64,000 nucleotides of DNA, taken from Chromatiaceae bacterium (GTDB lineage: Bacteria; Pseudomonadota; Gammaproteobacteria; Chromatiales; Chromatiaceae). The stretch lies in the NCBI GenBank assembly GCA_024639005.1, contig JAHEJD010000154.1, forward strand, positions 1-64,000, written 5' to 3'. A program made the translations under genes and the position numbers. The notes beneath the pieces are model-generated. The model saw only the letters and a program-made list of their open reading frames with translations, ran no database searches and was not told where the DNA came from. Shown in pieces: positions 6,334 to 44,359 of this stretch (position 1 is its first letter; each line of letters starts with the position of its first letter).

Positions 6334-6363
6334 CGGGTCTGTTGCATGTTGTTTTTCGGGCGT

Positions 6364-6545
6364 TAGCCTGCAGATCTCACCGATTTCCTGCTGCGGGCGT
6401 CGATACACTCGCCCTAACGGGGCGTACTCGCCACAGCCGCTTCGACGTAGTGTCAGCTACGCCTTCACCGTCTTCCACTGCGTGCGCCCCGCCATGGCGG
6501 CGTCTCGACACCCTCGCGACGAAAAAGGGTGAGACCTGCAGGCTA
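6364..6545 (+). repeat. MITE-like element, copy 1 (about 182 bp) with terminal inverted repeats
   Basis: Left end tagcctgcagatctcaccg (6364-6382); right end gggtgagacctgcaggcta (6527-6545), 17/19 inverted match; interior closely matches the reverse complement of 21760-21942. Confidence 0.85.
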
Positions 6546-6576
6546 GACGCAGCGATGCCGGCAGCACACCTTCTGT

Positions 6577-21222: not shown

Positions 21223-21762
21223 ATGAACGAAGAGCCCAACAACGCTGTCGATCGCCTGGTCGCCGCCTATGAGTCGATGCTTGAACGCGTCCATGCCGCG
21301 GCTGACACCGCCGAGCAGAAATCCGTTCCGTGGCTGCGCGAGGCGTTGGCGAATGCGCGTGAAAAGGCGGTTGAACTCGAGGAGCTGACGCGCGAGGAGG
21401 CAGAAAAGGTATCGAGCTACGTCGAGCGCGATATCCAGGATGCAGCGAGCTACATCGCCGAGACTGGCCAGGAGTTTCGTGACTGGCTGAGCTTTGACTG
21501 GCAGTTGATGCAGAATCGTATGCTGGACATATTCGCGGGGATGGCAGACCAGACGAGTCTTGCACTGAAGGGCTTCGCCGAGCAGGCGCGCCAGGCGAGC
21601 CTTTATCGCACCGGCGAGATCACCGCGCCCGGCGTGCTCAAATGCACTGACTGTGGTGAAGAATTGCATTTCGAGACGACCGGACATATCCCGCCCTGCC
21701 CGAAGTGCCATGCCACCAGTTTCCAGCGCAAGTCAGGCAAACCGAAGGCCGAAAGCGACTAG
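21223..21762 (+). CDS. Zinc ribbon-containing protein, YbeL/DUF1451-like
   Basis: LKCTDCGEELHFETTGHIPPCPKCHATSFQRKSGK C-terminal zinc ribbon after an acidic helical domain; near leuS as in E. coli. Confidence 0.8.
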   Translation: MNEEPNNAVDRLVAAYESMLERVHAAADTAEQKSVPWLREALANAREKAVELEELTREEAEKVSSYVERDIQDAASYIAETGQEFRDWLSFDWQLMQNRMLDIFAGMADQTSLALKGFAEQARQASLYRTGEITAPGVLKCTDCGEELHFETTGHIPPCPKCHATSFQRKSGKPKAESD

Positions 21763-21942
21763 TCTGCGTATCTCACCGTTTTTCGTAACGAGGTCGCCGA
21801 GACGCCGCTATGGCGGGGTGCACGGAGGGGAAGGCGGTAAAGGCGTAGTCGACACTACGTCGAACTGCCTGCAACGAGTACGCCCCGTCATAGCGAGAGT
21901 ATCGGGGGCCGCAGCAGGAAATCGGTGAGATATGCAGGGCTA
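21760..21942 (-). repeat. MITE-like element, copy 2 (about 183 bp), opposite orientation to copy 1
   Basis: Ends tagtctgcgtatctcaccg (21760-21778) and cggtgagatatgcagggcta (21923-21942); reverse complement aligns almost end to end with 6364-6545. Confidence 0.85.
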
Positions 21943-21951
21943 GCCCGATGC

Positions 21952-22716
21952 TCAAGGTGCCGCCGCGGCGGCGGCGAGCCGCGTCAATCGGGCGGCCAGA
22001 GACGCAAAGTCGATACCCCAGCGCCTGCCCTGTGCAACGAGCGCGTCGGATGAAGGTGTCTGCGGGGCGTGCGAGCGAAATGCCAGTACCAGCAGATTGT
22101 CGTGACCCGGATTGCTCAGCAGCAGGATATCCGATCCGAATGTCTGGCGAATCCGCAGCAGGGCCTCGCTGATCTTCATGGCGTCGTCGAAGAGCAGGTT
22201 GAGCGTCAAGGTGCCATGCGCACTTAGGTGATTGCGACAGCCCTCGAGGAAGGCGGCCTCTGTAATCCAGCGGGGGGTGGTCTGGTTCTCCTCGAGATCA
22301 ACCAGAATGTAGTCGTAGCGCCTGTTGCTGATCACGATGTGCTCACGGACATCGGCGATCTGCAGCTCCCAATTGCTGTCTGACGGCGGAAACTCGAAGT
22401 ACTCGCGTGCCAGGCGCGCTACTGTAACCGATAATTCGATCGCGTCTCCGTGGACCTCGGGTGCCCGCGCATGCAGCCAGCGCGCAATGGCGCCACCGCC
22501 ACAACCGGCCAGCAGGACGCGCTGCAGGGGGAGGCCGAACATCAGGTGCGCAAGCATCGCGCGGTTCACCGGGTTGGGCAGCACAGCCGAGTCGTGAATA
22601 TTGATCTCGGTCTGCAGAATGACGTCGTCGAACCATAGGCTGCGGCGATCGCCGTCTTCCCAGATCTCCAGATGCGTGTCGTCGTTTTCCTCGCGGTAGA
22701 TGCAGTGGCCGGACAT
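21952..22716 (-). CDS. Spermidine synthase-like methyltransferase fold protein
   Basis: MSGHCIYREENDDTHLEIWEDGDRRSLWFDD...VLLAGCGGGAIARWL...YDYILVDLEE; TGATG overlap with upstream mgtE stop. Confidence 0.75.
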   Translation of the reverse strand: MSGHCIYREENDDTHLEIWEDGDRRSLWFDDVILQTEINIHDSAVLPNPVNRAMLAHLMFGLPLQRVLLAGCGGGAIARWLHARAPEVHGDAIELSVTVARLAREYFEFPPSDSNWELQIADVREHIVISNRRYDYILVDLEENQTTPRWITEAAFLEGCRNHLSAHGTLTLNLLFDDAMKISEALLRIRQTFGSDILLLSNPGHDNLLVLAFRSHAPQTPSSDALVAQGRRWGIDFASLAARLTRLAAAAAAP

Positions 22717-24074
22717 CACACCAGGAACAGGCTGGCCAGCCCGAGAAAGGCGAAGAAGCCCACCACGTCGGTGACGGTCGTAAGCAACACAGACCCGGCG
22801 AGCGCCGGGTCGATGCCGACGCGCTCCAACAGCAGCGGCAGCACCGACCCGGTCACCGCAGCGAAAACCATGTTGATAGTGATGGCGGCGGCGATCAGCA
22901 CTGCGATCGCAGTGCTTTGGAACCAGGCCCCGGCGATCACCGCCACGACCACAGCCCATATCAGGCTGTTCAGACTGCCCACCGCCAGTTCCTTCAGCAG
23001 CAGGGCCCGGACGTTCTTGCTGCTTAGCTGTCCAAGCGCGATACCGCGGATCGCCAGGGTCAGGGTCTGGCTGCCGGCGATCCCGCCCATACTGGCAACG
23101 ATCGGCATCAGTACCGCCAGTGCGACGACCTTTGAAAGCGTCTCCTCGAACTGACCGATCACCCAAGAGGCGAGGAATGCGGTCGCCAGGTTGATGCCCA
23201 GCCAGAGCGCACGTCGGCGCGTGCTCGCCAACACCGGCGCGAACATATCCTCCTCTTCAGACAGGCCGGCGCGCCCCATGAACTGGTGCTCGCCCTCCTC
23301 TCGGATGACATCGATCACGTCGTCCACAGTGATACGTCCGAGCAGATGCCCCTCATCGTCGACGACTGGCGCGGACAAGATATCGTATGCCTCGAAGCGC
23401 CGCGCTACCTCGGTGGTCGGCAAGTCGGCCCGAATGGGCTGCATGTTCAGGCTCATCGCCTCGGCCACGGTGTCTTCCGGATTGCGGGACACCAGTTGCG
23501 ACAGACGCAGCACGCCGAGATAGCTGTCATCACGATTCACAACGAACAGCTTGTCGGTGTCGCTCGGCACGTTGTCACCGAGGCGTCGCAGATAGCGCAG
23601 CACGACATCCAGCGTGACCTCCGGGCGGACGGTGACGGTATCCAGATTCATCAGGCCGCCGGCAGTGTCTTCCGAATAGGAGAGCACGGCTTCGAGCCGT
23701 TTGCGTCGCTGGTCATCCAGGGCGTCCATCACCTCGGCCGTGATCGCCGAGGGCAACTGCTGGACCAGGTCGGCCAGATCGTCGAGGTCGAGGTTTGCAG
23801 TCGCCGCCAGCACCTCCGCGTTATCCATATGGCGGATCAGCGCAGCGCGCACCTCGTCGGTGACCAGCAGCAGAATCTGACCGTCCTGCTCTTCATCGAC
23901 CAAGTTCCAGATGATCTCGCGCTCACCCGCCGGCAGCGACTCCAGCATGTTCGCGATCTCTGCCGGAGCGAGACTGCGCAGCAGCCGGGTTGCCTCGCGC
24001 ACCGCGCCCGATGCGAGGATGTCCTGCAAACGTTGCAAGCGCGTTTCTTCGCTGCTTTCCGTTGGGGTGCTCAT
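22716..24074 (-). CDS. mgtE: Magnesium transporter MgtE
   Basis: MgtE N-domain, CBS pair and C-terminal TM segment (GGIAGSQTLTLAIRGIALGQLS). Confidence 0.94.
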   Translation of the reverse strand: MSTPTESSEETRLQRLQDILASGAVREATRLLRSLAPAEIANMLESLPAGEREIIWNLVDEEQDGQILLLVTDEVRAALIRHMDNAEVLAATANLDLDDLADLVQQLPSAITAEVMDALDDQRRKRLEAVLSYSEDTAGGLMNLDTVTVRPEVTLDVVLRYLRRLGDNVPSDTDKLFVVNRDDSYLGVLRLSQLVSRNPEDTVAEAMSLNMQPIRADLPTTEVARRFEAYDILSAPVVDDEGHLLGRITVDDVIDVIREEGEHQFMGRAGLSEEEDMFAPVLASTRRRALWLGINLATAFLASWVIGQFEETLSKVVALAVLMPIVASMGGIAGSQTLTLAIRGIALGQLSSKNVRALLLKELAVGSLNSLIWAVVVAVIAGAWFQSTAIAVLIAAAITINMVFAAVTGSVLPLLLERVGIDPALAGSVLLTTVTDVVGFFAFLGLASLFLV

Positions 24075-24077
24075 AGC

Positions 24078-24228
24078 CTAGCCTGGAAATCTCACCGCTA
24101 GGACCGCAATAGGCCGGCGGCGAAAACAGGGTTTCATTGCTCGAAGTGGAGTCATGTGAATTCATACCGCTGCAAGTTCAAGCGCTTACCAGGCAGCCGT
24201 TGGCTGGCCGGTGAGATTTCCAGGCTAG
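24078..24228. repeat. MITE-like element, copy 3 (151 bp) with perfect 20-bp terminal inverted repeats, different interior
   Basis: ctagcctggaaatctcaccg (24078-24097) and cggtgagatttccaggctag (24209-24228) are exact inverted repeats; 3 bp upstream of the mgtE ATG. Confidence 0.9.
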
Positions 24229-24327
24229 ACAGTGAATCAAATCGCCTGAATTCCAGCAGAGTTTAGCAGTCAGGCGTCGCGAAAGGCCCGCCGGCCTATG
24301 CAGATCAGGCCATCGGGGCGATCTCAA

Positions 24328-26055
24328 TCAATGCGCGCGATCAAGCTCTTCCAGCAGGCTCGTGGGGTCTATCGTCTCCAGGTTGTTCATCGCCCGATGA
24401 ACCGTCTCGGTCAGGCAGTTGACGTCGAGCTTGCGAATCTGTTGGTGCACATCAAGCAGTGCGGCAGGCTGCATGCTGAACTCGCGCAGACCCATCCCAA
24501 GCAACAGTGGCACGAAGCGCCCATCGCCGGCCATCTCACCGCACATACTGACCGGGATATCGGCGGCAATACCCGCCGCGATCACCTCGTGAATCAGCCG
24601 CAGTACTGCTGGATGCACCGGATCGTAGAGGTAGTTTACCTCGTCATCCACGCGATCTATCGCTAGGGTGTACTGGACCAGATCGTTGGTGCCGAGCGAC
24701 ATGAAATCGAGGCGCGTCGCGAATGCGCGCGCACTCAGGGCTGCCGCCGGGACCTCAATCATGCCGCCGATCGGAATCTGTGGATCATAGGCGATGCCGT
24801 CGGCTTCCAGATGTTGCATGGCCTGGCGAATGAGCCGCACAGCCTGCTCGATCTCCCAGACATTGGTCAGCATCGGCAGCATGATGCGCGTTCTACCGAA
24901 TGCCGAGGCGCGTAAAATGGCCCTTATCTGTGGATAAAACAGTTCCGGCTCCTTGAGGCACAAACGGATCGCGCGCAGCCCCAATGCCGGATTGCATGCA
25001 GCCGCACTCGTGGTGGCGGTGCCGGGTTGTTTGTCGGCGCCCAGGTCGAGGGTGCGAATTGTGACCGGTTGACCCTGCATGCCTTCCAGGACCGCGCGGT
25101 AGACGTCGAAGTGTTCCTCCTCGCTGGGTGGCCGATCTCGGTTCATGTACAGGAACTCTGTCCGGTACAGGCCGATACCCTGGGCGCCGTTGACCCGCGC
25201 GGTCTCTACATCCTCAACCAGTTCGATGTTGGCCAATAGCTGGATCAGCTCGCCGTCCTTCGTGATCGCTGGCTGAACACCGCGCCGGCGAAGCGCCGCA
25301 GTGCGCGATGCATCGGCCGCCTGACGCGCAGCGAAATGCGCCAGCACGTCCTCGTCACAGTCGGCCAGCACGATCCCGGTACTGGCGTCGAGCACCAAAG
25401 GTTCACCGTGCTGCAGGCAGCGGCTGGCCGCGCGTGCGCCCACCACGGCAGGGATGCCCAGGCTACGCGCCAGAATCGCGGTGTGCGACATCGGTCCGCC
25501 GTAATCGGTCGCGAAGCCGGCGACGTCATACTTTTTCATCATGATGATGTCGGCCGGGGTAAGGTCCTCGGCCAGCACGATCTGGTGACGCAGTTCCTCG
25601 AACTGTGACTGATGCTGTTCGAGCAGGATGCCGAGAATGCGGTTGACGACATGATCTAGATCATCGCGCCGCATGCGCAAATAGGAGTCCTCGATATCTT
25701 CGAATATCCGGACGAGTGCGTCACGATGCTGCTGCAGCGCCCATTCTGCACTGGTGCCCTCGGCGCGAATCATCTGAATCGGTCGCCCGGAGAGCGCCTT
25801 ATCCTGGAGCATCAGCAGATGGGTGTCGATGAACTCGCTGATCTCAGCCGGTGTGTCCGGCGGAATCTGCTCGCGCACACCCTGCAGCTGCAGGGCCGCG
25901 GTGCGCACCGCTGATTCGAAGCGTTCGATCTCGGTCTCGATCGCAGTCGCCGCCACCCAGCTGGGGGCCACGCACACCGGTCCGCGATTCAGCATGCAGG
26001 CATTGCCGATCGCCACACCGGTCCCGACACCGATGCCTGCGCACGCGATGGTCAC
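24328..26055 (-). CDS. ptsI: Phosphoenolpyruvate-protein phosphotransferase (PTS enzyme I; no N-terminal GAF domain)
   Basis: GGPMSHTAILARSLGIPAVVG active-site His region; FLYMNRDRPPSEEEHFDVYRAV; SMCGEMAGD. Confidence 0.9.
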   Translation of the reverse strand: MTIACAGIGVGTGVAIGNACMLNRGPVCVAPSWVAATAIETEIERFESAVRTAALQLQGVREQIPPDTPAEISEFIDTHLLMLQDKALSGRPIQMIRAEGTSAEWALQQHRDALVRIFEDIEDSYLRMRRDDLDHVVNRILGILLEQHQSQFEELRHQIVLAEDLTPADIIMMKKYDVAGFATDYGGPMSHTAILARSLGIPAVVGARAASRCLQHGEPLVLDASTGIVLADCDEDVLAHFAARQAADASRTAALRRRGVQPAITKDGELIQLLANIELVEDVETARVNGAQGIGLYRTEFLYMNRDRPPSEEEHFDVYRAVLEGMQGQPVTIRTLDLGADKQPGTATTSAAACNPALGLRAIRLCLKEPELFYPQIRAILRASAFGRTRIMLPMLTNVWEIEQAVRLIRQAMQHLEADGIAYDPQIPIGGMIEVPAAALSARAFATRLDFMSLGTNDLVQYTLAIDRVDDEVNYLYDPVHPAVLRLIHEVIAAGIAADIPVSMCGEMAGDGRFVPLLLGMGLREFSMQPAALLDVHQQIRKLDVNCLTETVHRAMNNLETIDPTSLLEELDRAH

Positions 26056-34954: not shown

Positions 34955-34973
34955 CTAGCCTGGAAATCTCGCC
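34955..34973 (+). repeat. Lone MITE-like terminal repeat (one end only)
   Basis: ctagcctggaaatctcgcc differs at one base from the copy-3 TIR; no matching opposite end seen within about 200 bp. Confidence 0.65.
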
Positions 34974-35085
34974 AGATGTGCCAACGATTGCGATGCTGTC
35001 CTTGCGGTTGTCGACCGGACAGTCGCTCATCCGGGCAGTTTCGCGAAGTGTTTCCGCGGTTAGAGCGGTTTGACGGCCGCGACGC

Positions 35086-43191: not shown

Positions 43192-43197
43192 GGTGCT

Positions 43198-43216
43198 TAA
43201 CCTGAAAATCTCACCG
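43198..43216 (+). repeat. Lone MITE-like terminal repeat overlapping the stop codon of the DegQ-like gene
   Basis: taacctgaaaatctcaccg, 17/19 match to tagcctggaaatctcaccg; TGA stop of the protease is within it. Confidence 0.6.
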
Positions 43217-44359
43217 GCCGGCCAGCCGCGGCCGCTCGCCGACGATCGCTACTTGTTCCAGTTCGCTGCCGTCGCGCGAGACGGTAAGCGACAATGGCGA
43301 GCCGGGGGGCCTGCTGGCGATGCGCGCCAGTATCTGCTGCGCACTCGTGACCGGTCTGCGATCGATCTTGACAATAAGATCGCCGGGTTTGAGTCCTGCG
43401 AGATCGCCAGGCCCACCCTCCAGCACACCCGATACCAGTATGCCTTCGCGAAAGTCGATCCCCATGGACTCGGCCAGCGCGGCCGTCAGATCCTGGCCGG
43501 AGATGCCCAGCCAACCACGAATGACGCGGCCGTTCTCGATGAGCTGGGCCATGACCTCTTTGGCCAGCTGAATGGGGATGGCGAAGCCGATGCCCAGCGA
43601 GCCGCCACTCTGCGAAAAGATCGCGGTATTGATCGCTACCACGTCACCGATGGCGTTGATCAGCGCACCGCCAGAGTTACCGGGATTAATGGCCGCATCG
43701 GTCTGGATAAAATTCTCGAACTCGGTGATGCCGAGTTGATTCCGTCCGGTCGCGCTGACGATGCCCATGGTCACCGTCTTCCCCACACCGAAGGGATTGC
43801 CGATGGCCATCACGACATCGCCGACCTGCAGCGCACCGGCCTCGCTCAGGCGCGCGACAGGCAGTTTGCTGCCTGCTGCCTGCAACACCGCGATATCGGT
43901 CTCCGGGTCACTGCCGACGAGTCGCGCCGGCAGATTGCGACCGTCCCCGAGGACTACCTGGATCTCGCTGGCGCCCTCGATCACGTGGTTGTTGGTCAGC
44001 ACATAGCCGTTGGGGTCGACAATGACGCCCGACCCGAGGCTGTTCTCGCGCTTGATCCGCGGGCGATTGATCTGGTTGCCGAAAAAATGCTTGAACAGGG
44101 GCTCGTCGAGCAGTGGATGGGGCTTTTCACGGGTGATTTTGGTCGCAAAGACGTTGACGACCGCAGGGGCCGCACGCCTCACTGCCTCGGCATAGGACAC
44201 AGGTCCACCGCTGCGCTCGAGCAGGATGGGCGCGGGAGTAATGGCCGGGGTGCGGCCGACCAGGTCGGGTCTCAGCAGCAGGACCACGAAGGCGGCGGCG
44301 AGACCGGTAGCGATGGACGTAAACAGGAAGGTGAATGCGCGATACCACTTCATGCGCAT
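43211..44359 (-). CDS. DegQ/AlgW/DegS-like trypsin-family serine protease with one PDZ domain
   Basis: N-terminal TM; LTNNHVIEGA (His), SDPETDIAVL (Asp), NPGNSGGALIN (Ser); single PDZ. Confidence 0.92.
   Translation of the reverse strand: MRMKWYRAFTFLFTSIATGLAAAFVVLLLRPDLVGRTPAITPAPILLERSGGPVSYAEAVRRAAPAVVNVFATKITREKPHPLLDEPLFKHFFGNQINRPRIKRENSLGSGVIVDPNGYVLTNNHVIEGASEIQVVLGDGRNLPARLVGSDPETDIAVLQAAGSKLPVARLSEAGALQVGDVVMAIGNPFGVGKTVTMGIVSATGRNQLGITEFENFIQTDAAINPGNSGGALINAIGDVVAINTAIFSQSGGSLGIGFAIPIQLAKEVMAQLIENGRVIRGWLGISGQDLTAALAESMGIDFREGILVSGVLEGGPGDLAGLKPGDLIVKIDRRPVTSAQQILARIASRPPGSPLSLTVSRDGSELEQVAIVGERPRLAGR

What the first reader, a model, noticed from the sequence alone, without database searches (positions are those of the whole stretch)
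24072..24228. Inverted-repeat element forms the mgtE leader and contains its probable Shine-Dalgarno
The 151-bp element has perfect 20-bp inverted repeats and ends 3 bp before the mgtE ATG. In the mRNA sense the start region reads CGGTGAGATTTCCAGGCTAGGCTATG. The AGG at about 7 nt before ATG is inside the TIR, so pairing of the two ends in the transcript would bury the ribosome-binding site in a 20-bp helix. This suggests a mobile repeat may now act as a translational switch for a Mg2+ transporter. It also separates mgtE from the upstream ptsI gene.
Basis: partly seen in the sequence, partly recalled or inferred. Interest (0 to 1): 0.62.

Follow-up and report, generated by a model that had tools for sequence, protein, structure and literature searches.

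The report
Miniature transposon inserted in mgtE leader
A short non-coding transposon of a family scattered through this genome has inserted into the RNA leader of a magnesium-transporter gene, where its two ends should pair into a hairpin just before the start codon; this is a real and probably expression-lowering insertion, but there is no sign that it acts as a magnesium switch.

Summary
Window 24078-24228 is a 151-bp element with perfect 20-bp inverted ends, 3 bp before the mgtE ATG. It is a MITE-like repeat. The genome has at least 32 inverted pairs and 48 solo ends, with no hits to the reversed control pattern. Eight congeners have almost none. The ends match IS1380-family insertion sequences: fragments in this genome, and full copies in relatives with 4-bp CTAA/CTAG target duplications. 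So the "20-bp repeat" is a 16-bp terminal repeat plus a self-complementary CTAG duplication. Five congeners keep a TGCTAMACT promoter-like motif that would give a 30-31-nt leader. Removing the element restores 31 nt here, so it landed between promoter and ATG and both arms should be transcribed. Folding predicts a strong block: 25.5 kcal/mol to open the start region, against 7.8 without the element and 7-10 in those congeners; highest of 63 window genes. The Shine-Dalgarno claim is weak, because mgtE lacks a good one throughout the genus. Nothing supports Mg2+ sensing. Other copies abut start codons too, and CTAG scarcity in genes explains the placement. Most likely a fairly young insertion that lowers mgtE translation, or is cut by RNase III like Correia elements. 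New member of a known kind.

The parts
24078..24228 (-). IS1380-type MITE with its target duplications (143-bp element plus 4-bp TSD on each side), in the mgtE 5' leader
24078..24081 (.). CTAG target-site duplication, mgtE-proximal
   Evidence: direct sequence; CTAA/CTAG TSDs of IS1380 copies in relatives
24082..24097 (+). 16-bp terminal inverted repeat CCTGGAAATCTCACCG (mgtE-proximal arm, next to the start codon)
24209..24224 (-). 16-bp terminal inverted repeat (distal arm)
24225..24228 (.). CTAG target-site duplication, distal
   Evidence: direct sequence
24260..24268 (-). Conserved extended -10-like motif TGCTAAACT (TGCTAMACT in congeners); predicted mgtE start of transcription about 24252
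   Evidence: same motif at a fixed distance (30-31 nt leader) in five congeners; inferred, not mapped
22716..24074 (-). mgtE, Mg2+ transporter, 452 aa, intact; start ATG conserved in congeners
24328..26055 (-). ptsI (PTS enzyme I), upstream gene
24078..24155 (-). 25-codon open frame inside the element, ending in TAG 3 nt before the mgtE ATG (possible coupling; speculative)
   Evidence: the ATG is present in all seven copies compared
6363..6546 (.). 182-bp sister MITE (TIR TAGCCTGCAGATCTCACCG), 30 nt upstream of a maf-like gene
21759..21942 (.). 182-bp sister MITE between convergent genes
34955..34975 (+). solo TIR end
43197..43217 (+). solo TIR end next to a start codon read on the minus strand

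Best explanation
A non-autonomous MITE with IS1380-type ends inserted at a CTAG site in the roughly 31-nt 5' leader of mgtE, between its promoter and its ATG. Shown by sequence: the element, its family, its target duplication, and restoration of the conserved leader length when it is removed. Inferred: transcripts from the native promoter carry both arms, which pair into a helix of about 20 bp ending 3 nt before the ATG. That helix hides the initiation region and lowers mgtE translation all the time rather than in response to Mg2+. Translation can occur to the extent that RNase III or other nucleases cut the helix, or ribosomes and cotranscriptional timing open it. The position reflects the target preference: CTAG is rare in genes and sits mainly in intergenic DNA and at stop codons. 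It does not by itself point to selection for regulation.
For: Family: 73 TIR sites against 0 control; 32 pairs and 48 solo ends in the fetched stretches. IS1380 (PF13701) fragments in the same genome carry ends CTAGCCTGCATCGCTCACCG and CTAACCCGCATCGCTCACCG. IS1380 copies in relatives show CTAA/CTAA and CTAG/CTAG duplications. Promoter-like motif to ATG: 30, 30, 31, 30, 30 nt in five congeners; here 178 nt minus 147 = 31. Opening cost 25.5 with the element, 7.8 for the near-empty leader, 7.0-9.6 in those five congeners, and 7.6-10.1 if only the proximal arm is transcribed; rank 63 of 63 window genes, mean 12.2, sd 4.2. Arm pairing probability about 1.0 over the outer 14 bp; arm duplex -37.8 kcal/mol. 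The mgtE copy is the only one of 32 pairs with perfect 20/20 arms and has the interior closest to the subfamily consensus. CTAG 44 seen against about 224 expected, 20 of 44 outside genes in 7.7% of the window.
Against: No transcript start, RNA structure or expression data are available. mgtE is intact and is the only MgtE-type match found in this genome, so complete silencing may be costly, although one CorA is present. Other window genes without an element reach opening costs of 22-23. The fold is an equilibrium prediction; kinetics, proteins and RNase III could change it. No near-identical source copy was found (closest 84%), so the insertion may not be very recent.
Confidence: 0.72

Rival explanations
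1. RNase III processing: the long helix is cut in the leader, as in Correia-element transcripts, leaving a shortened mgtE mRNA with an open start region. The element then changes mRNA stability more than translation.
For: Helix of about 20 bp with near-certain pairing. Published precedent: RNase III cuts Correia-containing transcripts at the TIRs, including a Correia element downstream of the mtrCDE promoter (PMC10969869). With only the proximal half of the element present the opening cost falls to 7.6-10.1.
Against: No data on RNase III in this organism; not tested. The predicted inner end of the helix is shared with competing pairs (0.2-0.55), so the perfect part may be near the lower length limit.
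Confidence: 0.3
2. Neutral passenger: the insertion has little effect because initiation or folding kinetics tolerate it, or transcription starts inside the element.
For: Insertion site explained by the CTAG target preference. Elements sit near many unrelated genes. Gene intact. If only the proximal arm is transcribed the block disappears.
Against: Conserved promoter-like motif lies upstream of both arms. No sigma-70-like consensus found in the element.
Confidence: 0.25
3. Leader-peptide coupling: ribosomes translate the 25-codon open frame in the element, melt the proximal arm and restart at the mgtE ATG 3 nt after its TAG stop.
For: Open frame 24155-24078 ends 3 nt before the ATG; its ATG is present in all seven copies compared. 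Reinitiation at leader genes is a proposed general mechanism (title and abstract of PMC4833913).
Against: No good ribosome site seen before the small frame. The frame runs on past the core in most other copies, and its end at mgtE is accidental.
Confidence: 0.12
4. The first reader's Mg2+-responsive translational switch.
For: Position in the leader of a Mg2+ transporter; a perfect stem next to the ATG.
Against: No Rfam match. Relatives have leaders of about 30 nt with no conserved sensor. A single dominant helix and no second fold seen. Similar abutments at Rieske, Sua5/YrdC, ion-channel and GH3 genes.
Confidence: 0.04

Closest known systems
Correia (CREE/NEMIS) elements of Neisseria, notably the copy downstream of the mtrCDE promoter
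   Same: Short non-autonomous inverted-repeat element in a leader between promoter and gene; helix-forming transcript; many copies (PMC10969869, PMC2229807)
   Different: Different TIR sequence and parent IS; here the arm abuts the start codon; no IHF site or element promoter was shown, and RNase III cutting is untested
IS1380-family insertion sequences (PF13701)
   Same: Terminal repeat CCYGNATNTCTCACCG-like and CTAR duplications in relatives' copies; fragments in the same genome
   Different: The element has no transposase gene and is 143 bp; trans-mobilisation is inferred
ERIC elements of enterobacteria
   Same: Intergenic MITE-like repeats of about 127 bp, co-transcribed and affecting mRNA fate (PMC2229807)
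   Different: Different sequence and ends; the documented effect is RNase E-mediated decay of upstream transcripts
M-box and other Mg2+ leader switches
   Same: Located in leaders of Mg2+ transporter genes (general knowledge)
   Different: No sequence or structure match here

Membership tests
MITE (non-autonomous inverted-repeat transposable element) | Short, with terminal inverted repeats, no transposase gene | tested here: met
   143 bp, 16-bp perfect TIRs, too short to hold a transposase gene
MITE (non-autonomous inverted-repeat transposable element) | Target-site duplication | tested here: met
   CTAG on both sides here; 11 of 32 pairs keep identical 4-mers, the commonest CTAG. CTAG is palindromic, so at this copy alone it cannot be told from TIR
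MITE (non-autonomous inverted-repeat transposable element) | Multiple dispersed copies | tested here: met
MITE (non-autonomous inverted-repeat transposable element) | Empty site in relatives | tested here: met
   Five congeners lack it; removal restores the 31-nt leader. Leader sequences are too diverged for base-by-base alignment
IS1380-derived | Ends match those of an IS1380 element able to mobilise it | tested here: met
   End matches of 16/20 (own C106) and 17/20 (L162) over duplication plus TIR
IS1380-derived | Mobilised in trans by the IS1380 transposase | not testable with these tools
   needs a transposition assay
Correia element | Correia TIR sequence | not tested
   TIR here is CCTGGAAATCTCACCG, of IS1380 type; the Correia TIR was compared from memory only, and looks different
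Correia element | Transcript cut by RNase III at the TIRs | not testable with these tools
   needs RNA mapping
Mg2+ riboswitch | Match to a known Mg2+-sensing RNA family | tested here: not met
   Only two tRNAs in the window at gathering thresholds

The most novel reading that the evidence does not exclude
A subset of this MITE family acts as portable initiation-blocking hairpins. By inserting at CTAG sites just before start codons (mgtE, a Rieske gene, a Sua5/YrdC gene whose ATG lies in the TIR, an ion-channel gene, a GH3 gene), the arms place several unrelated genes under common post-transcriptional control, for example through RNase III level.
Probability: 0.1. Interest if true: 0.6.

Novelty: new member of a known kind. 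Interest (0 to 1): 0.33.

Why it matters
It gives a clean natural example of a bacterial MITE dropped between a conserved promoter and a start codon, with the ancestral leader inferable from relatives. The effect of a MITE hairpin on translation, which a 2024 review of prokaryotic MITEs (PMC10969869) does not list among demonstrated effects, becomes directly testable with a pair of reporters. It also shows how an IS1380-type CTAG target preference steers insertions to gene borders.

Tried and rejected
An IS630 origin was tested and rejected (no PF13358). PF01609 gave only weak partial matches, one of them overlapping the IS1380 fragment. A 12-nt match to the TIR in the mgtE leader of G003 (L030) was judged coincidence because that leader has normal length (31 nt). 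The sigma-70 consensus scan found nothing; the promoter inference rests on comparison. G002 (L029) is an exception: its motif lies 155 nt upstream. Literature searches for IS1380 with CTAG and for MITE effects on translation initiation gave nothing direct.

Full report
Observation. The minus-strand region between ptsI and mgtE contains CTAGCCTGGAAATCTCACCG at 24078-24097 and its exact reverse complement at 24209-24228, with the mgtE ATG at 24074-24072. mgtE and ptsI are confirmed by Pfam. The finding's coordinates and quoted sequence are right.

What the element is. The 151 bp recur elsewhere in the same 3.2-Mb genome: six other copies cover most of the element at 78-84% identity. The TIR pattern has 73 hits at up to 3 mismatches against 0 for the reversed control. 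In the stretches fetched there are 32 inverted pairs and 48 solo ends. More than half of the pairs form a 182-bp subfamily with TIR TAGCCTGCAAATCTCACCG; two of these lie in the window at 6363-6546 and 21759-21942 and explain the long inverted pair I1. The rest run from 40 to 327 bp. Ninety-two relatives have essentially none, and the eight other genomes of the genus have 0-3 ends each.

Parent element. IS1380-family transposase (PF13701) fragments occur in the genome. Next to them are ends CTAGCCTGCATCGCTCACCG and CTAACCCGCATCGCTCACCG. Multi-copy IS1380 elements in relatives show CTAA/CTAA and CTAG/CTAG flanks with TIRs of the same type. The 20-bp repeat is therefore best read as a 16-bp TIR plus a 4-bp CTAG duplication that happens to be self-complementary. 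CTAG is scarce in the window (44 against about 224 expected from base composition); 20 of the 44 lie outside called genes although such DNA is only 7.7%, and 8 are stop codons. That alone steers insertions to gene borders. The gene calls behind searches are my own codon-usage calls, not an annotation.

Where it inserted. In five congeners a TGCTAMACT motif lies at a fixed distance from the mgtE ATG, giving predicted leaders of 30, 30, 31, 30 and 30 nt; G002 is an exception with the motif 155 nt upstream. Here the same motif (TGCTAAACT, 24268-24260) predicts a start at about 24252 and a 178-nt leader. Subtracting the 143-bp element and one duplication leaves 31 nt. The element thus sits between the promoter and the ATG, and both arms should be transcribed.

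Predicted effect. Opening positions -18 to +12 costs 25.5 kcal/mol with the element, 7.8 in a near-empty leader (30 nt, one base short of the exact 31-nt empty site), and 7.0-9.6 in the five congeners. It falls to 7.6-10.1 if only the proximal arm is transcribed. mgtE ranks highest of 63 window genes (mean 12.2, sd 4.2), though three others reach 22-23. The outer 14 pairs form with probability of about 1. The Shine-Dalgarno claim is weak: predicted anti-SD pairing is -4.0 here, -1.8 in the empty leader and +0.4 to -2.2 in congeners, so mgtE in this genus appears to start without a strong SD.

Is it a switch? Rfam found no Mg2+ RNA, relatives' leaders are too short for a sensor, and the fold has one dominant helix. 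Other copies with an end within 13 nt of a start codon show a similar predicted rise at unrelated genes: a Sua5/YrdC gene (29.9 against 7.6), a Rieske gene (30.7 against 14.8) and an ion-channel gene (17.4 against 8.1). The pattern fits target preference. A constitutive lowering of translation, or RNase III cutting as described for Correia transcripts (PMC10969869), is more economical than a Mg2+ switch.

Age. The mgtE copy is the only pair of 32 with perfect 20/20 arms, and among the seven compared copies its interior is closest to consensus, 9.5%. This suggests a relatively young insertion, but its nearest relative in the assembly is only 84% identical, so the source copy is lost or unassembled. 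Selection to keep the arms paired cannot be excluded from these data.

Conclusion. A real, well-delimited IS1380-type MITE insertion in the mgtE leader with a credible but untested inhibitory hairpin; no evidence for Mg2+ regulation. The rival confidences overlap with the best explanation, because the insertion itself is common to all of them; they differ only in what the hairpin does.

Noticed in passing
window 6363-6546 and 21759-21942: Two copies of a 182-bp sister MITE with related ends; they are the 184-nt inverted pair found by the repeat search.
   Followed up: yes
genome-wide, for example window 21759-21762: In 14 of 32 paired copies the TAG/TAA of the target duplication is the stop codon of a neighbouring gene; a CTAG or CTAA duplication restores the stop, so such insertions should be harmless.
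   Followed up: partly
L098:1642 (C11): A Sua5/YrdC-family gene appears to start at an ATG that lies inside the MITE terminal repeat (CGGTGAGATATGCAGGTTAA).
   Followed up: partly
L023:1934, L024:3985, L025:175: Verrucomicrobia contigs carry the same end sequence; in L023 and L025 a second inverted end follows within about 75 bp, suggesting related MITEs in another phylum.
   Followed up: partly
solo ends, for example window 43197-43217 and L008: About 48 ends lack a recognisable partner and several stop after GGCCGGCCA(ACGGCTG); how solo ends arise is unexplained.
   Followed up: no
L002, L003, L006 interiors: Longer copies contain an inner palindrome around GGTAGCYRTAGCTACC and an open frame like MTPCFRRWPIAVLAVSRSPW shared among copies.
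   Followed up: no
L029 (G002): In one congener the promoter-like motif is 155 nt from the mgtE ATG, so that leader may have its own insertion or another promoter.
   Followed up: no
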